Source: a virus
Virus record (IMG/VR): IMGVR_UViG_3300020392_000076
Location: 1-24,714 of that record
Length of the DNA stretch: 24,714 bases
Strand: one strand, 5' to 3'
Both the position numbers and the translations under genes were made by a program. The notes beneath the pieces are model-generated. The model saw only the letters and a program-made list of their open reading frames with translations, had not been told where the DNA came from and made no database searches. Shown here in pieces: positions 3,326 to 20,210 of this stretch (the first letter of the stretch is position 1; each line of letters begins with the position of its first letter).

Positions 3326-3694
3326 TCAAAATTGCACTACAGACCCGCGTGTTCTTTTTCTTCTGCCATTCATGACTGCGCCGCATCCCCTAGCAACAGC
3401 CGTGCCAGCCACTTTTTTACCCCGGAAAGGCCGTTTAACGGGGCCTCCATTTGCAAGTTTTGTGACTTTTGCTTGTTTTGTATTAGATACCACTGTCTGG
3501 CCCTTTGCTCCCGCTCTCTTCTTCTTTCGTGCTGTAGATGCTCTTTCAGTTTTTGAGAGGCTTCTAGCTTTTGAAGCTGGTAAGCAGCGGTCTGGGTTTT
3601 TCTTGTCTTTAGATGTACCGCATTTGCCCTTAATGCTTCCATCAGTTCCAATCCGAACCCAATTTTGATTTACCCATTTCTTTAACTCACCCAT
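3326..3694 (-). CDS. Small cationic protein with KCG/CLPASKA and RGCGAVM motifs
   Basis: A 122-residue strongly basic protein with two parts. Residues 1-60 (WVRIGTDGSIKGKCGTSKDK, then PDRCLPASKARSLSKTERAS, then a Lys/Arg run) match a small-protein family seen in marine phages and giant viruses, in which a Cys pair brackets a basic loop (Cys25 and Cys37). Residues 81-118 hold ANGGPVKRPFRGKK and VARGCGAVMNGRRKRT, a tail I have seen as a separate short protein in other phages, so this may be a fusion. The GGPVK string also occurs at the C-terminus of the polyvalent protein. It may bind DNA or sit in the virion; this is inferred from charge and position. Confidence 0.6.
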   Translation of the reverse strand: MGELKKWVNQNWVRIGTDGSIKGKCGTSKDKKNPDRCLPASKARSLSKTERASTARKKKRAGAKGQTVVSNTKQAKVTKLANGGPVKRPFRGKKVAGTAVARGCGAVMNGRRKRTRGSVVQF

Positions 3695-3695
3695 T

Positions 3696-3824
3696 TTAGG
3701 CTCTTTTTTTCTTACCTAACACTCGTTTTAAAGTTTTTGCTTGCTTTGCATGTAATTTTGAAGCTTTATTCAAACCTTTAACTACTTTACGAACTTTTTT
3801 CTTATTTGACTTTGTAAGCGTCAT
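3696..3824 (-). CDS. Tiny Lys-rich basic protein (42 aa)
   Basis: A 42-residue ORF of which about 40% is Lys or Arg, predicted to be one long amphipathic helix (KKKVRKVVKGLNKASKL in the first half, KTLKRVLGKKK in the second). Its ATG overlaps the stop of the upstream gene in an ATGA arrangement and its stop lies 1 base from the next ATG, so it fills the gap between two genes exactly. The helix resembles the one in the 27-residue protein at 4839-4922 (KKSVKRVIKAVKKATKK), which suggests duplication. Function is unknown; nucleic-acid binding is a guess from composition. The ORF is short, but its spacing argues for a real gene. Confidence 0.6.
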   Translation of the reverse strand: MTLTKSNKKKVRKVVKGLNKASKLHAKQAKTLKRVLGKKKRA

Positions 3825-4108
3825 TTACCTTTTCTCTTTCCACCCTTAGATTTTTTAGCATAATTGGGGTCTTTACAATATTTTGAGGCGGCAAGATTTG
3901 CATATGCACTAGGATATGTATCAAAGGTACGTTTTGCCCAAGCTTTACCTTCCGGGCAGATCTTACTTCCTTTTGATTTTTTTGAAGCCGCACCTCCTTT
4001 TCGGAAGTAACTTAAACCTTTTGGCGTAGGATTGCCTTTCATTTTTTTACGACCTTTCATCGGGGGCTTGGATATTTGATTTGCGATTTGTCCACGCGAT
4101 ATCGTCAT
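3821..4108 (-). CDS. Small cationic phage protein with CPEGKAWAKRTFDTYPSAYAN motif
   Basis: A 95-residue basic protein. Residues 51-79 contain the strongly conserved block ICPEGKAWAKR / TFDTYPSAYANLAASKYCKD, which recurs in small proteins of many marine phages and some giant viruses; the two cysteines (51 and 78) bracket it. A Gly/Lys-rich linker precedes it (KGLSYFRKGGAASKKS) and a Lys-rich tail follows. I chose the ATG at 4108 because a strong GGAG ribosome binding site lies 8-9 bases upstream, although this overlaps the upstream membrane-protein gene by about 60 bases. It is coupled to the next gene by an ATGA overlap. The biochemical role is unknown. Confidence 0.65.
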   Translation of the reverse strand: MTISRGQIANQISKPPMKGRKKMKGNPTPKGLSYFRKGGAASKKSKGSKICPEGKAWAKRTFDTYPSAYANLAASKYCKDPNYAKKSKGGKRKGK

Positions 4109-8542: not shown

Positions 8543-8977
8543 TCAACCGTGTAAAATGTCTTCAGGGTCAGATATCTTAGCAAGGATTTCATCATCGTTA
8601 AGTATCCGAACCTCACCACCTTCAATCTTAAAGCGAGAACCCGCATATCTTGCAAAAATAACCCAATCTCCTTTGTTGCACCAAGTGCCCAAAGGAAATT
8701 TGTCTTTATCTTCGTAAGCAAGAGGACCTACTTTAAGGACGTAACCCACTTGAGTGGATATTTCTTGATTTGCCAGTATCTGATCTGGAAGCAAAATGCC
8801 CCCTTCAGTTTTACCTTTACCCTTGTAAGGGAGAACCAATATACGCCAGCCTGTAGGCTCTGGCATTCTGTCCAATAGCGATTTATCAATTTTTGAAGGG
8901 TCGAGTACACGTTCTGAGGGATGTACCCAGGGAGAAGACGAGGCGTCTTCATTTGTAGTTTTGACTGCATCAGTCAT
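8543..8977 (-). CDS. GroES-like co-chaperonin
   Basis: A 144-residue protein whose residues 41-140 match the GroES/Cpn10 fold. The first strand is PTGWRILVLPYK. A probable mobile loop at 52-72 (KGKGKTEGGILLPDQI) should contact GroEL. Next come QVGYVLKVGP (76-85), CNKGDWVIFARYAG (100-113) and EVRILNDDEILA (122-133), which parallel the GroES order of motifs. About 40 extra residues precede the domain. Phage co-chaperonins such as T4 gp31 replace host GroES so that the chaperonin can fold the capsid protein. The gene sits just upstream of the scaffold and capsid genes, which fits that role. An AGGAG ribosome binding site precedes the start. The fold is a strong match; capsid folding is inferred. 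Confidence 0.85.
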   Translation of the reverse strand: MTDAVKTTNEDASSSPWVHPSERVLDPSKIDKSLLDRMPEPTGWRILVLPYKGKGKTEGGILLPDQILANQEISTQVGYVLKVGPLAYEDKDKFPLGTWCNKGDWVIFARYAGSRFKIEGGEVRILNDDEILAKISDPEDILHG

Positions 8978-10828: not shown

Positions 10829-11023
10829 TTACTTGCAGCTATGGTAGCTGCCGCCCTTAATTGCTGCGCCCATGCCGCGAACTTTTGAGATACCCATAGC
10901 GGTCGGTACAGATACTTCTTTTGCTTCGCCATATGGCACACGACCTTGCCCCTCAATCTCCGCAAAAGGTTTAGCTTTTGGTGACTCTGTTGGGGTGTTT
11001 GTCACTATCTTTACTACACTCAT
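10829..11023 (-). CDS. Small basic protein with GMGAAxKGG motif
   Basis: A 64-residue protein whose C-terminus, VRGMGAAIKGGSYHSCK, matches a short motif frequently found in small marine phage proteins encoded next to the portal gene. The N-terminus is a beta-like MSVVKIVTNTPTESPKAK. It overlaps the portal stop by 4 bases (ATGA) and has an AGGAG ribosome binding site, so it is co-translated with the portal. No catalytic motif is seen. It may be a minor virion protein; the role is unknown. It ends 14 bases before the probable ATT start of the next gene. Confidence 0.55.
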   Translation of the reverse strand: MSVVKIVTNTPTESPKAKPFAEIEGQGRVPYGEAKEVSVPTAMGISKVRGMGAAIKGGSYHSCK

Positions 11024-13419
11024 TGTACGCTCCTATCTTTCATGCGTTCTCTTTCTAAAGCAGCCTGTATTCTAGCGGCTGTCTGCTCTTCTTGACTTCT
11101 AATACGCTCATCAAACTGACGAGATTTATCCATCATTTGAGCTTGTTTCAGGTTGAGCTCCCGCTCTTCCCGTTCCTTGTCATTCTGCTCTGCCAATGCG
11201 TCAAGCTGCAATTCCTGTTGCTTCAACGCTACTACAGGATCTGGTTGAGCGTTACCAGATAGCTGGCGACCCATGTCCTGTACGGCTTTCATCCCCTCAG
11301 CCATATACACTGCAGCCAAAGCATCAATCTCCATCTTAACTTCAGGAGGTATTTGCTGCTGTCCTTCCATGCCAGACTCACGCATGGCTCTTTCTACCGC
11401 ATCTATCTGGACATGTTGGAAAACGTGCTTCTGAAGGTTCATGGCAACCATTGGGTTCGCCCCTACAAGCGGTGAACCGCTCATAACAAGGTGCGCCATA
11501 ATGTGCGCCTCATGATTCTGCCCAGGAAATGCCTGCATCTTCTTTCCATCAAGTGCTTCTTGGTTTTCTTGGGCCGGGTCCTTCGGTGTAGGCTGCTGTG
11601 CCTCTTCATTCATCAAATACTTATCAATATCCCGTACACCCAAGGCTTCGTACATGTCCCGATAGACCTCATACATGTTGTGTATTTGTGGGGCCTGGGA
11701 CGCAAGCTGCATTTTGGTTTGTGCAAGAGCAATCCGTTGTGCTTGAGAGAATACATTGGGGTTGGAAACAGGTATTACGTCTATTCGGTCATCAAAATCC
11801 TGCGCCTTTACTGCAGAATCTACGCCTTCAATAGAGTATGGGTAAACAGGCGGCAGACTCTCTGCCATAACCCTTGAAAGCAACTTAAATTCAAGCTTCA
11901 TCGCGTAATGAAGGCGTTTATGGACCGCGCTCATCACACGAGAGCCCTGCTCCATCATTGCGATTGTAGTCCCTACAGCAGCCTGTTGGTTGCCATCCCC
12001 TACCTTGAGGTCTGTTATGGTCGCGAATCGCCTGCCTGCGTCAACTACAAAGCCTAGAAGGTTAAATAATGTGCCGTCAGGGCCTTTAAACGGCAGGGGC
12101 ATCAGACTATCCCGAATTGCACCCCCAGGAGCGTCTACATCCCTAAATTCACCCGGCTGCAAAGGCTCATCATCGTCTCTTATCCGTAGGCCACGAGCTT
12201 TGAAGCCTGCGGGCAGGTTAGAAAGCGTCCCTGCATCTATCAATTGCCGTAAAGCTGCAGTCGCTGTCCTTGAAAGACCGCCAATAGTGTGAATAAGCCC
12301 CAATCCATAGAAACCAAAGCCTGGAAGGAACTTATAATGCACAAAATACTGGATTTTCTCCATATTTGGGTCATTTTCGCGGTAGTTTCTGCGAATGGAC
12401 AGTACCTGACCGTTGTCCTGAGAGATAGTTACGATGTATGGCAGCTTGATTCCTGTTGGTTCGCCGTCCTGACCCTTGTCTTCATACCCCTCAAGGTCCA
12501 AATCGACGTGACATTCCAGCAAGGTGCAGTCATAGTCCACAGATGACGGCTCAATTCCGGTAATACGATCGAGTTCAGAGCCCAAATCGTCATCCACCGC
12601 CTGTTGCGGCAACACAGGTATGTCCCTGTAAAAGCCCCCAATCTGCTTTTTACGCAATTCGTTCAAGCTCATACGCACGACATGCGTGATATTGGGGCAA
12701 GTTTCTAAATCAGCGGTTTCATAAGGCACTACTAGATGCTCTGCAGCTATAAATTTGCTTACAGCTCTGTCGATACCCTCGTCATAGTAGACTTTCTTAA
12801 AGGTACTCCCCGCTAAAGGTAAGTAAAACAGCATTTGGTCAAACTCAGGGGTGTACTCCTCCATCACATTCGTGATGTAAAAGTTCATAAAGTCCTTTAC
12901 ACGCTGAGCTTGGTCAGACTTTGCTGCGTCTGCTGACCCGACAATAGCAGTACGCACGGGTCCACCCGCTGGCAGCAGCTCATTGAACGCCTGAGCTTGG
13001 AACTGCACCGCCGCTTCAGCCAGCAACGGATGCGTGACGCCTGACGCACCTCTGAAAGGCTCCGATCTTTCTGAATAATTGAATCCCAATAATTCCAAAC
13101 CGTTTGCATAAGCATCTTCCCATTCCTGTCTGCTAGCTTTGTTAGCGTCAAAGTCACTTGTAAGCTCACTTGCAACCGCCCCAAGCGTTCTGTCGTCCAA
13201 ATCCTCTGCTAAATTGGCGTAAAAACCATTGTCAGGCATGTCTGTAGACGGTTCAAAATCTACAATGGCCCCACCATCCTCCGATATTTGTATGTCAAAC
13301 TCACTTTCAATAGGCATTTCAAGACTGCCAGGGGCTTCAATCTCCACCTCTGCCATCAACTCTTCTTGATCTATCTGTGGATTTTGATTCTCTACCAAAG
13401 AAATAGGGGGTCTAACCAT
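11020..13419 (-). CDS. Portal protein
   Basis: A 799-residue portal, the dodecameric ring through which DNA enters and leaves the capsid. Conserved stretches include FRGASGVTHPLLAEAAVQFQ with FNELLPAGGPV after it (about 122-155), QYFVHYKFLPGFGFYGLGLI in the wing, and a stem/crown helix with GTTIAMMEQGSRVMSAVHKR. The C-terminus from about 720 is a long charged coiled coil (KQQELQLDALAEQNDKEREE and onward), a barrel-like extension of the sort seen in long podoviral portals. The first 75 residues are acidic and probably flexible. It overlaps the preceding gene by 8 bases and the next by 4. GAGG precedes the ATG. Length and motifs agree with podovirus-type portals. Confidence 0.85.
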   Translation of the reverse strand: MVRPPISLVENQNPQIDQEELMAEVEIEAPGSLEMPIESEFDIQISEDGGAIVDFEPSTDMPDNGFYANLAEDLDDRTLGAVASELTSDFDANKASRQEWEDAYANGLELLGFNYSERSEPFRGASGVTHPLLAEAAVQFQAQAFNELLPAGGPVRTAIVGSADAAKSDQAQRVKDFMNFYITNVMEEYTPEFDQMLFYLPLAGSTFKKVYYDEGIDRAVSKFIAAEHLVVPYETADLETCPNITHVVRMSLNELRKKQIGGFYRDIPVLPQQAVDDDLGSELDRITGIEPSSVDYDCTLLECHVDLDLEGYEDKGQDGEPTGIKLPYIVTISQDNGQVLSIRRNYRENDPNMEKIQYFVHYKFLPGFGFYGLGLIHTIGGLSRTATAALRQLIDAGTLSNLPAGFKARGLRIRDDDEPLQPGEFRDVDAPGGAIRDSLMPLPFKGPDGTLFNLLGFVVDAGRRFATITDLKVGDGNQQAAVGTTIAMMEQGSRVMSAVHKRLHYAMKLEFKLLSRVMAESLPPVYPYSIEGVDSAVKAQDFDDRIDVIPVSNPNVFSQAQRIALAQTKMQLASQAPQIHNMYEVYRDMYEALGVRDIDKYLMNEEAQQPTPKDPAQENQEALDGKKMQAFPGQNHEAHIMAHLVMSGSPLVGANPMVAMNLQKHVFQHVQIDAVERAMRESGMEGQQQIPPEVKMEIDALAAVYMAEGMKAVQDMGRQLSGNAQPDPVVALKQQELQLDALAEQNDKEREERELNLKQAQMMDKSRQFDERIRSQEEQTAARIQAALERERMKDRSVQ

Positions 13420-13690
13420 TTACAACCTCACATCCGCAACGCGGGCTCATACCCTTTATAAAGACAGGTGTTCCCTCGCCCATGTATGCGCCTGTCACAT
13501 TAAAATCCATGAACTCTATCGCCTCTGTCAAAGACATGCCGTCTCGTTTCCGCAATATATCCACACATTTATCCCAATCGTAAGCAATCATCACGGGAAG
13601 TCCACATCTTTCAGCAGATCCAATGATGGCCTCATCAAACCCGTCCGCTTTCAACATGACTACTTCTTCGTCAAACTCTTCTTCTATCAT
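13412..13690 (-). CDS. Conserved phage protein, portal-associated (92 aa)
   Basis: A 92-residue acidic protein with a block widely seen in phages: a EEVVMLKADGFDEAIIGSAE start, then IAYDWDKCVDILRKRDGMSL, then EFMDFNVTGAYMGEGTPVFI. Three cysteines lie in the first two-thirds or at the C-terminal RCGCEV. I start at the ATG at 13690: GGAGG lies 8 bases upstream, whereas the in-frame ATG at 13705 that overlaps the previous stop has no ribosome binding site. The gene lies between the polyvalent protein and the portal, with an 8-base overlap into the portal. No function is known for the family; no enzymatic motif is visible. Confidence 0.65.
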   Translation of the reverse strand: MIEEEFDEEVVMLKADGFDEAIIGSAERCGLPVMIAYDWDKCVDILRKRDGMSLTEAIEFMDFNVTGAYMGEGTPVFIKGMSPRCGCEVVNG

Positions 13691-13704
13691 AGCATATCCC
13701 TCCA

Positions 13705-16700
13705 TTATTGCATATGTTTGATAAATTCTGCGATACCAGCCTTAACTGGGCCGCCTTTTGCCATTCCTATTTGAGGCCCCGCATATTTAAATATGTTAGT
13801 AAAAACATCTTCAATATCCATTTCGCCTCGTTTCACCTTCCTAATATTTTTGCTTAATTCCCTTTCAGAAGTCTTTTTTGTGTGTCGCCTATTTAAAAGA
13901 GCTTGAGACGGACCCGCACCTTCTGTCGCTTTTAGAGGAATATTTCTTTCTCTTAAAACATCTAAAGCAAGCAAAGGATGGTCCTCTGCAGTTGCAGGAG
14001 GGGCAAACATGTCAGAATCTTCATATAAATCAAATAATTTACCTTTTGTTTCAGGGTTTCCCAGTAAATTAAAATACACATTACTTGAACGATTTGGGTC
14101 CGCACCTTCTTTTTGAGAACGGCCCGCAGCATAAAGAAGAGCTGCATACCCCTCTATTCCAAATTCTTCAATTAGTTTCTCTGGGGAGGCATTATCAAGT
14201 AATAAATTAGCTTGAAAATTACTCTCTACGGCTTCTGCAAACTCATTAGCACGAGATTCTACTTCTCCCCCCTTCTGCATAAAAGGAATAAACTTGGCTA
14301 TTCCTGCTTTTACATGACCGCCTTTTGCAAACTCCTGTGGCTGGTTCGTGGGCCGCGTTTCGGTCAACGCCGCCCCTGTACCAATGCCCACGGTCCCCGC
14401 AAAACCGTATTTCTTTAAAATATCTAAAGTAGCCGCATCAAAAACAACGTAATTATAATCGTCTGCTCCGGGGTCTAACCTATCGTACCGCGTACCACGG
14501 GTTGAATACTTCGTTCCTTTTATGCCGTTATTGTTCAATAAAATAGAAATACGCGGGTCATCTAAACTAGAACCACCATAGAATTTGGCAATGGACAACA
14601 GAACTCCCTGACCGTCAGCCCGCCCCCGTTCGACCTCCTTAATCAACTTCTCATCGCCAATCTTACGAGCGATTGCTGAAACCTTTTCACGAACAGCAGG
14701 GTGCTGGTCCTCCATTGAGCGATAGAAATCAATCATTTCGGTACGCGGATCAATGTCCATAGCTACTTGCATAAGCGTACCGTCAGAAGGTCCAAGACCT
14801 ATAACCTCAAAACCATCTCGCTCCACACCCGTCTTCTCATCAACGTGAACTGCGTTTTTCAAACGTAAAGTTTTACCGTCATCGAAAGCGTAGTCTGTAA
14901 AGCCCCCGGTTAAATTTGTATTTACATTGTCCTCGCCAATGCCATAAACCAATTCATCGAGCAAATTTGAGAACTCTTCGTTATCTTCAACAAAAAGCTT
15001 TGGTCTTCCTGTGTCAGGGTCTGTCACACGATCTGTGTTAAACCGTCCAACAACCATGTTCAAATCGTCTTCATCTGCAAAAGGGTCTAACTCTTTGCGA
15101 AAACCTACGTTGCGTTTGTATGTTTCGCCCACCTGACGAAGATCCGAAAGATAAATACCATGACCAAACATGTTTGCTCCTTCACCTGTCTTTACATAGT
15201 GAAGATCAAACTTATCAAAATCAGTTCCTGCCCCGTGCCAAGTCTCAACTTTACGGCGACGAGCGGCTTCATTTATTTTTGGAACCATGCCCTGAATGCC
15301 GCCTTTACCTGTTGGGTACTGAACTCCCATAGGGCCGACTTCTTTAATTACGTCCTGCATGTCAAAGCCGCCTGGAGCAAACACTTCGATAGGAGCGGTC
15401 GCAGCTCTCATTTTGAGCTCATATAGTCGGCCATCTATTCTCTCTAATGCAGCAGGAGAAGTAGCCTTTCGTCGCGAACTTTCCAATTCACGAATTTCCG
15501 CAAACAGCTTCTCCCTTTCCTCAGAGCTTCGAGCAACCTTTTCCCCAATTATTCTTAAATAATTTCTATAAGAGTCTTCAGTAATGCCCAAAGCTTTCAT
15601 TACTTTTTGTTGTTTTTGTATCGCGCCTTGATATCTATTAGCCATTATTTCTTTAGCGCGAGCCAAAACTTCTTCACGCATAGCGAGATTATTAGGATCT
15701 AATTTAGCCCCTTGGTACATGGGACCTGGATAAACCATCGCACGAGAACGCATGTTATTGGGCATATTATTTTGCGAAAGAATATCATCACGAGCCATGT
15801 TTAAAGCTTGATAAATTCTACCATTTTCGCTTTGGGGGTTTGCCTGCGATAAGTTGCCCATACTGTAGGTTCCTTGATCAAGGCCAATTCTTAGGTTCCG
15901 GTCAACTTCATCTAGGCGTTTTACAAACTCATCAGAAACTTTTTGATAATCAGTCAGAGTAAAAGCCATGCCCCCTTGAGGTAAGCCCTCTACGTCTTGC
16001 AATAAATGCTGTAACTCGTGGATCATAATGCTTCTAAATTGATCTGGGTCACTAGAATCAAGCTGATCTGCTCTTATTGTAATGCGGTTATCATACGAAC
16101 TATAATGACCTAATTCGCCATTTGGGGTCGTTTCAGAAATACGAAGTTGATATTGATTGATGAAATCCCCATACGCCTGCATAATAGGGTGGTCAGAAGG
16201 CAAATGCTCTGACAAAGGACTGTCAAAGAATTTTCCAAAGCCAGGTTCTGTCGGAAGGCTTATGTTATTGTCTAAATAAGAAATAACATTCCCCCCATCC
16301 AAAGATTCATAATTAAAAAAGTCGTACATGTCATGGACAATGCTTTCCGTTGGGGCGTCTGTCCCAAAATTAATATCGGAAAGATCTGCTTCAAATTCAG
16401 TGTAAAAAGTTACGGTTGGTTTTCCGTCTGCGTTATATATAATGGAGGGCCCTGTTCCAAAGCCTGTTTGCTTTTTTGTCTCTCTGAAAATATCATCCGC
16501 TAAAGAGTAAACATTTTCTTCGTTTGCAAAGTCAGCTTTTTTTGCCTTGTATAACTTTTCAGCTAATTCTCTTGATTTTGTAATTTCAGGAAAAGCTCTA
16601 GCCGCCTCTTCGCCACCCATCATTTCTGTCCTTGACGTGTCGGGCAAATCTTGATCCGGGGACCGTGGTACGGGAACTATCTGTCCGTCAGGTGTGACCG

Positions 16701-17124
16701 CGACAGGAGTATTTTTGTTTTTCATATATTTTATAAAGCTTGCAATGCCGTCACTTAAAAGATCCGCTCCTTTAGCGGTGGCTATCTCCCCCAAACCTAG
16801 AGCACCCCCCACAAAACGTGCATCATCCCGCATTTTTTGGCGTAACTCTGTAGGGGCTTTGCCAAAAGTTTTCTCCCTTAAAAGCTCAGAGCCCGCTATT
16901 TTATCTAGCCCCTGCATTTGTTGAAGCATCAAAATATTTGATGTGACTGGAGGTAGAGAAGCAGCCCCTTTGCCTACTAATCCTGCAATATCAGCAAAGC
17001 TGCCTAAAAGTTCCGGCCCCATTCCTTCCAAAAGACCTTTAAGGGTTTCTATGCCCTCACCTGTACGGTCATACCCTTCCGGGTATCTTCGGGACGGTAC
17101 TAAAGAAATTTTTGATTCAGCCAT
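13705..17124 (-). CDS. Polyvalent protein: HELQH zincin-like and ADP-ribosyltransferase-like domains
   Basis: An 1139-residue multidomain protein. Residues 365-376 hold IMIHELQHLLQ, an HExxH zinc-protease motif (His369, Glu370, His373) preceded by a beta/alpha region. Residues 628-661 hold WHGAGTDFDKFD and TGEGANMFGHGIYLSD, the signature of ADP-ribosyltransferases in phage polyvalent proteins, with Tyr658 as the conserved aromatic; the domain ends near NYVVFD (891-896). The N-terminal 135 residues are hydrophobic and helical. The segments around 126-134, 933-950 and 1122-1139 share GIAxFIxxM. Such proteins are thought to be injected with the DNA and to modify host targets. It lies between terminase and portal and overlaps terminase by 8 bases. 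The enzyme activities are predicted from motifs only. Confidence 0.8.
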   Translation of the reverse strand: MAESKISLVPSRRYPEGYDRTGEGIETLKGLLEGMGPELLGSFADIAGLVGKGAASLPPVTSNILMLQQMQGLDKIAGSELLREKTFGKAPTELRQKMRDDARFVGGALGLGEIATAKGADLLSDGIASFIKYMKNKNTPVAVTPDGQIVPVPRSPDQDLPDTSRTEMMGGEEAARAFPEITKSRELAEKLYKAKKADFANEENVYSLADDIFRETKKQTGFGTGPSIIYNADGKPTVTFYTEFEADLSDINFGTDAPTESIVHDMYDFFNYESLDGGNVISYLDNNISLPTEPGFGKFFDSPLSEHLPSDHPIMQAYGDFINQYQLRISETTPNGELGHYSSYDNRITIRADQLDSSDPDQFRSIMIHELQHLLQDVEGLPQGGMAFTLTDYQKVSDEFVKRLDEVDRNLRIGLDQGTYSMGNLSQANPQSENGRIYQALNMARDDILSQNNMPNNMRSRAMVYPGPMYQGAKLDPNNLAMREEVLARAKEIMANRYQGAIQKQQKVMKALGITEDSYRNYLRIIGEKVARSSEEREKLFAEIRELESSRRKATSPAALERIDGRLYELKMRAATAPIEVFAPGGFDMQDVIKEVGPMGVQYPTGKGGIQGMVPKINEAARRRKVETWHGAGTDFDKFDLHYVKTGEGANMFGHGIYLSDLRQVGETYKRNVGFRKELDPFADEDDLNMVVGRFNTDRVTDPDTGRPKLFVEDNEEFSNLLDELVYGIGEDNVNTNLTGGFTDYAFDDGKTLRLKNAVHVDEKTGVERDGFEVIGLGPSDGTLMQVAMDIDPRTEMIDFYRSMEDQHPAVREKVSAIARKIGDEKLIKEVERGRADGQGVLLSIAKFYGGSSLDDPRISILLNNNGIKGTKYSTRGTRYDRLDPGADDYNYVVFDAATLDILKKYGFAGTVGIGTGAALTETRPTNQPQEFAKGGHVKAGIAKFIPFMQKGGEVESRANEFAEAVESNFQANLLLDNASPEKLIEEFGIEGYAALLYAAGRSQKEGADPNRSSNVYFNLLGNPETKGKLFDLYEDSDMFAPPATAEDHPLLALDVLRERNIPLKATEGAGPSQALLNRRHTKKTSERELSKNIRKVKRGEMDIEDVFTNIFKYAGPQIGMAKGGPVKAGIAEFIKHMQ

Positions 17125-18574
17125 AATATGCGCGGACCTGAGTATGCTTATCTTCGTCTATGTCCCAATCGTCCGTGGGCAGCGATACAAAGTTACCTTG
17201 CCGATAACGCATCAACGCTTGGGTCATGCTGTCAACAAGGTCATCATACTCTCCATTTGGAAACGCTGCAACTTCTTCAATAAGCTCATCGGCAAAGGTT
17301 TCATCAGGGGCGTACACCATGCCTGCCTCAAACAAAGGCGAGACCGCATGTACCCTTGAAACCTTGTCATTACCCCGTGATGGAGAGAAGTTAACAACAG
17401 GAATGCCGATATTGCGTAATTCATGCGTTAAAGGCATACCAGAAGCTTTCGCCTCAATTATCACCGTTTCTGGCTCCCAGAAGTTGTATTGATCCCAAGC
17501 TACCTGTTTTAACTCAGGAAAATCCCACCGCCCCTTCTTACTGTCTAACAAAATTAACCCTCTAGGGCCCCCAGCCTCCTCTGGCCTGAAGACACCCCAA
17601 GTTGTGATTGCAGAAAAATCCGCTGTCTCCTTCTTTGAAAACGCAGTATCATAGCTCTGTATTACATACTCAAGATTGGGCACATCCTCTTTTTCCCACC
17701 TTTGCCACCACTCTCGTGGTATAATAGCGTTTTCCTCGCCCGTGGGCCGTTGTTGGTACTGAGCGTTCCATTTCGAGGGCGGAATGGACGCTTTTACCTT
17801 CTCTAAATCATCTTTTGACCAAAACTCAGGCCATGTCGGGTCCCCATCATCTAACAAAGCAGGCAGCTCAACTATCTCCCACTGGTCCGCTTTGGGGTCT
17901 TTATTCATCTGTCGTATAAGTTGCCCGGTCAAATCCTTCTGAGACCACCGCGTCATAACCAGAATGATAGACCCACCCGGCTGTAGTCTCTGTCGGGGGC
18001 CCCCAGTATACCAATCCCAAGCGTCATCAAACCCGTTATTCGACATCGCAGTCTGCTCAGAATGTGGGTCGTCAATGATAACAAGGTCTCCCCCGCGACC
18101 CGCAAGGTTTGATCCCACGCCAACCGCATAATACGTGCCGCCCCTGGCGGTATCCCAACGACCAGAAGCTTTACTGTCGGCTGAAAGCTTGGCTTCAGGA
18201 AATATTTCTGTGTAATCTTCCCTGTCCAAAAGGTTTTTGACCTTACGACCAAAGCCTACGGCAAGCTCTGTGGTGTGCGTCGCCTGTATTATTTTCATAT
18301 TTGGATTGCGGCCTATAAACCATGCAGGCAGAAAGTTCGACGCAAACTCAGACTTTGTATGTCGCGGGGCCATGTTGATAATAAGTCTCTTGAGGGACCC
18401 ATCAGCCACCCTTTGGAACTTCTCTGCGATGATTTTGTGATGCTCACCTGCTATGAACTCAGGCCACATGGCGCGAACAAAGGTCAGGAAATCCTTGCGA
18501 CAGGAATCTATCCTATCTAATTGAGCTAATCTTAACTGAAGTTTGACCGCTCTATCTCTTGCGTCTTCACTCAT
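17117..18574 (-). CDS. terL: Terminase large subunit
   Basis: A 485-residue packaging motor with nuclease. The ATPase has a deviant Walker A at 69-75 (APRHTKS, in place of the common P-x-R-x-G-K-S), Walker B at 164-169 (LVIIDD) and a TRW coupling motif at 208-210. The nuclease domain supplies Asp309 (QSYDTAF), Glu374 (VIIEAKASG) and Asp444/Asp445 or Asp448 (GEYDDLVDS). The family's usual length is kept and the protein is complete. The ATG overlaps the stop of a small exported-protein gene by 4 bases and its own stop overlaps the polyvalent gene by 8 bases. The small terminase is not adjacent but lies at 23550-24113. Confidence 0.92.
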   Translation of the reverse strand: MSEDARDRAVKLQLRLAQLDRIDSCRKDFLTFVRAMWPEFIAGEHHKIIAEKFQRVADGSLKRLIINMAPRHTKSEFASNFLPAWFIGRNPNMKIIQATHTTELAVGFGRKVKNLLDREDYTEIFPEAKLSADSKASGRWDTARGGTYYAVGVGSNLAGRGGDLVIIDDPHSEQTAMSNNGFDDAWDWYTGGPRQRLQPGGSIILVMTRWSQKDLTGQLIRQMNKDPKADQWEIVELPALLDDGDPTWPEFWSKDDLEKVKASIPPSKWNAQYQQRPTGEENAIIPREWWQRWEKEDVPNLEYVIQSYDTAFSKKETADFSAITTWGVFRPEEAGGPRGLILLDSKKGRWDFPELKQVAWDQYNFWEPETVIIEAKASGMPLTHELRNIGIPVVNFSPSRGNDKVSRVHAVSPLFEAGMVYAPDETFADELIEEVAAFPNGEYDDLVDSMTQALMRYRQGNFVSLPTDDWDIDEDKHTQVRAYYG

Positions 18575-19487: not shown

Positions 19488-20210
19488 TTATTTGGGCTTT
19501 TTAGACCTGCCAAGATCTCCAGCAATGTGATGACGGATTACAGCTCGCGGGCCAAGCTGGCCCATAAACTGATCGAGCTGCTCCGAATCGCTAAGCTGCT
19601 GATCAGAGTCTTTTGTGTTCTCCCATTGTCTCCGGACATTGTGGTAAGCCGCATAGCATCCGCCCTGCTCTTCGAGCTGTCCAGCAGCTCGCTTGCCGGA
19701 TCCATGCCCAGAAAAAATAACCGGATAATCACGATCGCCCCGTGCACAAAGTGGTTTTCCGTCCCCGCAATCAATACAGCTAAAATTTTCTAGATATTCC
19801 TGCGGGCATCTGACAAGAGTCGTCCCGTCATATTTTGAAGATCTAAATGATTTTGACTCGCGCCAGAATGATTCGTCCACAACAGAGACGGCGGGCTGGC
19901 CCCGTTTAATCCACTGAACGGCCTGTTGGAAAGTGTCGGCAGAAAAATTGATCACTGTTTTGGTTGGGCCCAAAAGGGCTTTATACCATTTGGGGTGAAA
20001 GTGAGAGTAAGTCATAGATTCACCCGCTCTGGGCTTAGCGTTCAAAACTGCATCCATATAAACCAGATCAGGCATGTCTGAACCGCAACCGCTTGGATTC
20101 AGGCTGCAGCTCTTTGGGCAAGTGTCAAAAACAGACTGGTCACCCGCCCTATATGTCACGGCGCAGCCCTTAGTTTTTGTAGCTCTGCTTATTTCCACTG
20201 TCTTTAACAT
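19488..20210 (-). CDS. Cysteine-rich phage protein of unknown function (240 aa)
   Basis: A 240-residue protein with nine cysteines. Their arrangement suggests metal binding: C31-P-x-x-C35 with C42, then C135, C145-x-x-C148, C155 and C185 (GGCYAAYHNVR). The C-terminal IRHHIAGDLG is a conserved motif. Similar proteins occur in phages and plasmids and I believe carry a DUF7227-like label, but I am not certain of that name. The gene overlaps the small upstream gene by 7 bases and ends at a strong terminator. The C-P-x-x-C pattern and His pair could bind zinc or an iron-sulfur cluster. It belongs to the accessory block between the terminase subunits. Function is unknown. Confidence 0.65.
   Translation of the reverse strand: MLKTVEISRATKTKGCAVTYRAGDQSVFDTCPKSCSLNPSGCGSDMPDLVYMDAVLNAKPRAGESMTYSHFHPKWYKALLGPTKTVINFSADTFQQAVQWIKRGQPAVSVVDESFWRESKSFRSSKYDGTTLVRCPQEYLENFSCIDCGDGKPLCARGDRDYPVIFSGHGSGKRAAGQLEEQGGCYAAYHNVRRQWENTKDSDQQLSDSEQLDQFMGQLGPRAVIRHHIAGDLGRSKKPK

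What the first reader, a model, noticed from the sequence alone, without database searches (positions are those of the whole stretch)
13705..17124. Polyvalent protein combining a zincin-like HELQH motif and an ADP-ribosyltransferase-like domain
Seen: IMIHELQHLLQ at residues 366-376 and WHGAG plus TGEGANMFGHGIYLSD at 629-661 in one 1139-residue protein between terL and portal. Known: polyvalent proteins of phages and conjugative elements join effector domains and are thought to enter with the DNA; ADP-ribosyltransferases of such proteins carry HG, GEGxxxFGxGxY and a final NYVVFD-type strand. Inferred: this virion may deliver a protease and an ADP-ribosylating enzyme to act on host defence or transcription. 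The N-terminal 365 residues match nothing I recognise and could hold a further domain.
Basis: partly seen in the sequence, partly recalled or inferred. Interest (0 to 1): 0.75.

Follow-up and report, generated by a model that had tools for sequence, protein, structure and literature searches.

The report
Swappable phage cargo protein with ADP-ribosyltransferase
A marine phage carries, between its DNA-packaging and portal genes, a large protein joining a metal-dependent protease-like domain to an ADP-ribosyltransferase-like domain; in sister phages the body of this protein is swapped for unrelated ones while a short tail end is kept, which suggests an address label for cargo loaded into the virus particle and injected into the host.

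Summary
The 1139-aa ORF (13705-17124) sits between terL and an SU10-type portal gene in a marine podovirus related to the HTVC023P-type pelagiphages. Both domain calls hold up at family level. HELQH belongs to a polyvalent zincin family (96 distinct sequences; H-E-Q-H 100% conserved). The second domain belongs to a large ART-PolyVal-like subfamily (159 distinct domains; His630 98%, Tyr658 99%, strand-5 Asn891 100%). Neither activity nor packaging was tested, and no solved ART structure matched. The new part is context. The terL-portal interval is a hypervariable slot (0.1-5.4 kb) holding mostly unrelated proteins. Two pairs of sister phages have 98% or 94% identical portals and unrelated slot-protein bodies, yet share an 86-89% identical C-terminal tail (GG-V...GIxxFIxxM), with the swap junction immediately upstream of the tail. 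The tail also recurs inside several slot proteins (clearly once more in this one), and a natural deletion between copies keeps one tail. I read this as a virion cargo slot with a backbone-matched docking tail, the cargo here being a zincin+ART effector. Known kind (polyvalent protein); new variant because of the tail and slot logic.

The parts
13705..17124 (-). Polyvalent slot protein, 1139 aa
   Evidence: ORF; homologues in other contigs; overall dN/dS 0.18-0.27
16717..17124 (-). N-terminal exchangeable module, residues 1-136; contains a weak tail-like stretch at 119-136
   Evidence: dN versus L005 is 0.59 in residues 1-118 and 0.05-0.07 in the next regions; AF2 pLDDT mostly below 50; tail HMM i-E 0.001 at 119-136, not kept in L005
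15730..16599 (-). Zincin-like metallopeptidase domain, about residues 176-465
   Evidence: 96 distinct family sequences, 456 relatives among viral contigs, AF2 pLDDT about 80-94 in most of 180-250 and 290-390
16006..16020 (-). HELQH active-site motif, residues 369-373
   Evidence: H, E, Q, H 100% conserved, Q376 99%, E379 97%, G384 98%
15271..15729 (-). Mostly helical linker, residues 466-618; homologue L011 carries an extra ART-PolyVal domain inserted at about residue 608
   Evidence: secondary structure; L011 insert alignment and PF18760 E=7.5e-11
14395..15270 (-). ART-PolyVal-like domain, residues 619-910
   Evidence: 159 distinct relatives; hhalign to PF18760-type ARTs 97.3% over 48 columns; Foldseek to viral ART-PolyVal-like models, best E 5e-15
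15226..15240 (-). ART motif I WHGAG (His630)
   Evidence: H 98%, G 100% conserved
15142..15189 (-). ART motif II TGEGANMFGHGIYLSD (Glu648, Tyr658)
   Evidence: E 95%, Y 99% conserved
14437..14454 (-). ART strand-5 motif NYVVFD (Asn891, Asp896)
   Evidence: N 100% conserved, D 74%
14269..14337 (-). Tail copy A, residues 930-952 (QEFAKGGHVKAGIAKFIPFMQKG)
   Evidence: tail HMM i-E 8e-6; no hit to reversed sequences
13768..14268 (-). C-terminal domain of unknown function, residues 953-1119; absent from homologue L009
   Evidence: alignment; dN/dS about 0.3
13708..13767 (-). Tail copy B, C-terminus, residues 1120-1139 (GMAKGGPVKAGIAEFIKHMQ)
   Evidence: shared with L026, whose slot protein is otherwise unrelated outside a short zincin match
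17117..18574 (-). TerL, upstream border of the slot
13412..13705 (-). 97-aa ORF between slot protein and portal, no family
11020..13419 (-). SU10-type portal, downstream border of the slot

Best explanation
This is a polyvalent effector that I infer is carried in the phage head. It is made late, docked into the assembling procapsid through a short C-terminal tail (GG-V...GIxxFIxxM) matched to the phage's own portal/head backbone, ejected into the host with the DNA, and there the ART domain uses NAD+ to ADP-ribosylate a host protein early in infection, while the zincin domain either cleaves the polyprotein between its modules or cleaves a host protein. The gene sits in a slot whose cargo is exchanged between related phages. 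Shown here: gene, domain families, conserved active-site positions, purifying selection, slot hypervariability, tail sharing across unrelated bodies. Inferred: late synthesis, packaging, docking by the tail, injection, catalysis, targets.
For: Zincin and ART family conservation, hhalign, Foldseek to viral ART-PolyVal-like models. Head-gene context between terL and portal. ART relatives elsewhere lie next to an internal virion protein (vir555) or between portal and scaffold (phiGT1). The same slot in relatives holds other polyvalent-type domains: PcfJ 5e-9 and GP88 3e-7, LPD23 3e-17, DUF6782 3e-6 and DUF6884 4e-11. Tail: window/L026 share 53/60 nt of tail with 35/100 nt just upstream and 280/300 downstream; L111/L028 share 82/90, 24/100 and 272/300. 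The tail HMM hits many slot proteins, none of the reversed ones, and in the window and G003 only this protein convincingly. Tail copies repeat inside L031, L032, L033; L009 has lost about 188 aa between copies in frame. Literature: polyvalent phage proteins are predicted to be virion-packaged (PMC5512222).
Against: No proteomics or assay. Foldseek finds no PDB ART, and the zincin PDB matches are weak. Asn instead of an acidic residue at the strand-5 position could mean an atypical or non-catalytic ART. The third zinc ligand was not located. The tail could be passenger sequence left with the backbone at a recombination border. Tail HMM seeds came from the same set of slot proteins, so its E-values are not independent. 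The broader A-x-GG motif is found in only 13 of 33 slot-protein clusters.
Confidence: 0.6

Rival explanations
1. The protein is an ordinary polyvalent protein and the conserved tail is only a by-product of where recombination happens: the tail stays with the backbone because the crossover lies just inside the 3' end of the gene.
For: Tail DNA identity (88-91%) is close to that of the downstream backbone (91-93%) in both sister pairs.
Against: The tail motif is recognisable between lineages whose portals are only about 68% identical and whose bodies are unrelated (window versus L031/L032, 68% tail identity over 19 positions). It occurs internally, far from the gene end, and in the window protein 9 of the 14 shared residues of the two copies use different synonymous codons, so the protein sequence is being kept.
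Confidence: 0.25
2. The slot protein is a head-assembly or portal-associated structural factor (MuF-like role), and the zincin and ART folds are degenerate and non-catalytic.
For: Position between terL and portal; strand-5 Asn instead of an acidic residue; third zinc ligand unclear.
Against: Sister phages carry unrelated proteins or almost nothing in the slot (gap 106-182 nt in L077, L087, L098), so an essential structural role is unlikely; active-site positions are nearly invariant across large families.
Confidence: 0.15
3. The protein is made early in the infected cell and acts there (anti-defence or superinfection exclusion), without being packaged.
For: Hypervariable gene content is also typical of early accessory genes; the HTVC027P transcriptome is mosaic and gene-level timing of its slot genes was not readable here.
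Against: Position inside the head-gene block; tail shared across bodies; ART relatives in other phages lie beside virion genes.
Confidence: 0.15

Closest known systems
Phage polyvalent proteins (Iyer et al. 2017, PMC5512222)
   Same: Multidomain head-region protein joining a zincin metallopeptidase and an ART; relatives in other giant phage proteins
   Different: Sits in a terL-portal slot with exchangeable bodies and a conserved, repeated C-terminal tail; no such tail was mentioned in the passages of the paper read here
ART-PolyVal (Pfam PF18760; Tox-ART-HYD2 clade)
   Same: H in strand 1, Y in strand 2, NYVVFD-type strand 5; profile and fold similarity to viral ART-PolyVal-like models
   Different: GTGEGAQ subfamily with an invariant strand-5 Asn; PF18760 gives no hit to this protein at E<1 and only sub-threshold hits, over motifs I-II, to canonical members
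Roseovarius Plymouth podovirus 1 vRNAP protein (CBX87992)
   Same: Giant phage protein carrying an ART and HExxH motifs; the ART prototype named by Iyer et al.
   Different: No RNA polymerase here; its ART has Glu (GEIMVVK) where this subfamily has Asn; its HExxH regions do not match this zincin profile
Phage T4 Alt
   Same: Works-like comparison only: a head-packaged, injected ART that modifies host RNA polymerase (as cited in PMC5512222)
   Different: R-S-E active site, different ART clade; no membership claimed
HTVC023P-type pelagiphages (HTVC027P, HTVC023P, 023Pt_psg01)
   Same: TerL 55-62%, portal about 50% identical; same terL-slot-portal order
   Different: Slot holds unrelated proteins in each

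Membership tests
Polyvalent protein (phage type) | Several functionally unrelated domains in one polypeptide | tested here: met
   Zincin plus ART domains, both with family-level support
Polyvalent protein (phage type) | Encoded among virion genes of a portal-terminase phage | tested here: met
   Between TerL and SU10-type portal
Polyvalent protein (phage type) | Packaged in the virion and delivered with DNA | not testable with these tools
   Needs proteomics; phiGT1 virion data are in a figure and supplement not readable here
Zincin-like metallopeptidase of polyvalent proteins | HExxH in a conserved domain context | tested here: met
   100% conserved H-E-Q-H in 96 distinct sequences, shared upstream motifs
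Zincin-like metallopeptidase of polyvalent proteins | Third metal ligand and zincin fold | tested here: inconclusive
   Candidate E433 or E484/E485; a GE.EA motif was found in only 33 of 110 family sequences; AF2 zincin core confident but Foldseek matches weak, best probability selecase 0.63 at E 1.8
ART-PolyVal (PF18760) | Pfam model at gathering score | tested here: not met
   No hit at E<1 for this protein; canonical subfamily members just below cutoff, e.g. 30.0 versus 31.2 bits
ART superfamily, polyvalent H-Y-D type | H in strand 1 and Y in strand 2 | tested here: met
   H630 98%, Y658 99%
ART superfamily, polyvalent H-Y-D type | Asp in strand 5 | tested here: inconclusive
   D896 present here but 74% in the subfamily; N891 is the invariant one
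ART superfamily | ART fold | tested here: inconclusive
   Matches viral ART-PolyVal-like predicted models, none to solved structures

The most novel reading that the evidence does not exclude
A group of marine podoviruses has a dedicated cargo slot in which the injected effector is exchanged freely while a short C-terminal address tag, matched to each phage's own head backbone and sometimes repeated between modules, loads whatever cargo is present into the virion.
Probability: 0.4. Interest if true: 0.75.

Novelty: new variant of a known kind. Interest (0 to 1): 0.55.

Why it matters
How phages choose which proteins to load into the head and inject is known for few systems. A short tail that stays with the backbone while the cargo changes gives a directly testable loading signal, a way to find injected effectors by their tail rather than by their (mostly unknown) domains, and a natural set of interchangeable cargoes in phages related to those of SAR11. 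The invariant strand-5 Asn makes the ART subfamily a clear target for testing whether it is catalytic.

Tried and rejected
No near DNA match and no protein match of the whole protein in the phage collection. NCBIfam and the PDB sequence search found nothing; a profile search of the ART against PDB sequences gave only coiled-coil-like noise. Foldseek of the ART model against the PDB gave no ART, which I report as a failure rather than explain away. The search for related loci with the diverse zincin alignment had no usable pattern and was replaced by a closer subset. The looser motif [AMFYLV]xGG was only weakly enriched in slot proteins (36 observed, 17.6 expected, shuffle maximum 28; proteins carrying it not above the shuffles), so I use A[DEKNRHQ]GG (21 observed, 4.8 expected, maximum 10) and the tail HMM; TerL controls also show a mild excess (6 observed, 1.9 expected) and portals a deficit. 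An RNA or regulatory element was considered: Rfam found none in the window, and internal tail copies argue against a gene-end DNA signal. The comparison of internal and terminal tail DNA in L031 was out of register and is not used.

Full report
Observation. Its borders are TerL (Terminase_6C; 60% identical to HTVC027P) and an SU10-type portal (about 50% identical to HTVC027P, HTVC023P, 023Pt_psg01 and DSL-LC04), with a 97-aa ORF before the portal. The record is a 24.7-kb IMG/VR fragment; identical or 84-92% identical copies of the protein lie in other contigs, two of them 56 and 61 kb long. Selection is purifying: overall dN/dS 0.18-0.27, ART 0.06-0.14, zincin about 0.19-0.21 in three comparisons.

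Zincin. Pfam alone is sub-threshold (DUF6782 0.004, PhageMetallopep 0.018). Relatives L111, L026 and L034 link it to a family with the pattern D.P.LF.AYP...G.Y...I...LLHEIQHAIQ..EGF..GG; 456 viral-contig stretches encode relatives of that family. Over 96 distinct sequences H369, E370, Q372 and H373 are 100%, Q376 99%, E379 97%, G384 98%. AF2 of residues 1-620 is confident in most of the zincin part and not in residues 1-160. PDB matches have high E-values; the highest probability belongs to selecase, a small metallopeptidase (prob 0.63, 56 residues at 2.1 A). The third ligand was not located (candidates E433, E484/E485).

ART. Profile searching gave 159 distinct domains. Signature: H630 98%, G631 100%, E648 95%, Y658 99%, Y669 100%, N891 100%; D896 is 74%. 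The prototype polyvalent ART in RPP1 has Glu at the Asn position by eye. PF18760 does not reach E<1 here and hits canonical members only just below its cutoff. hhalign to a set of PF18760-type ARTs gives 97.3% over strand 1 to strand 2. The AF2 core is confident; Foldseek matches viral models named ART-PolyVal-like or PolyVal ADP-ribosyltransferase but no solved ART. So family membership is supported, the fold against solved structures is not, and catalysis is untested.

Slot. From 80 portal-related contigs plus annotated relatives, the terL-portal gap runs from 106 to 5386 nt and holds many kinds of protein. Recognised domains include PcfJ and GP88, DUF6884, LPD23 and DUF6782; most members have none. 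L011 has an extra, confident ART-PolyVal domain (7.5e-11) inserted beside the native ART. Residues 1-118 differ between the window and L005 (dN 0.59) while the regions from 137 on are at dN 0.02-0.07, so the N-terminus is exchanged too.

Tail. Window and L026 have 98% identical portals and slot proteins related only by a short zincin match (35% over 37 aa), yet a shared tail: 53/60 nt in the tail, 35/100 just upstream, 280/300 downstream. L111 and L028: 94% identical portals, no body match, 82/90, 24/100, 272/300. L111 is related to the window protein over its N-terminal and ART regions (43% and 35%), but its tail is L028's. Tail identity rises with portal identity over all pairs (Spearman 0.58), though body relatedness does so too (0.38) and the pairs are not independent. 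The tail HMM, seeded by hand from these proteins, finds further slot proteins and no reversed sequence, and in the window and G003 only this protein convincingly. Copies recur internally: two in the window protein plus a weak third; one internal and one C-terminal in L031 and L032, two internal in L033; L009 has lost about 188 aa between the window-type copies in frame. In HTVC027P the looser GG motif appears in gp41 of the slot and in several late-region genes, but also in primase and gp80, so it is not specific by itself.

Mechanism. Best reading: late synthesis, docking through the tail, ejection with DNA, ADP-ribosylation of a host protein, zincin processing of the polyprotein or of a host protein. 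Iyer et al. propose packaging and zincin processing for such proteins; T4 Alt is the working analogy only. The rival with most weight is that the tail is recombination border sequence; the internal copies with synonymous divergence and the recurrence across lineages argue against it without excluding it.

Verdict. New variant of a known kind; the tail and slot logic carry the interest.

Noticed in passing
window 19488-20210 (-): Encodes a DUF7227 protein (E 2.6e-21), function unknown.
   Followed up: partly
window 8543-8977 (-): Phage-encoded GroES-type co-chaperonin (Cpn10, 2e-13) in the head-gene block, as in HTVC023P-type pelagiphages.
   Followed up: partly
window 3326-3694 and 3821-4108 (-): Two short basic proteins carrying GG motifs (ANGGPVKRPFRG, RKGGAASK) without any Pfam family.
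   Followed up: no
L011 3826-4344: In-frame insertion of a second, different ART-PolyVal domain beside the native ART, flanked by GGI on both sides.
   Followed up: partly
L009 6001-8850: Natural in-frame deletion between tail copies A and B that removes the C-terminal domain and keeps one tail.
   Followed up: yes
L031, L032, L033: Slot proteins with the tail motif repeated between modules.
   Followed up: partly
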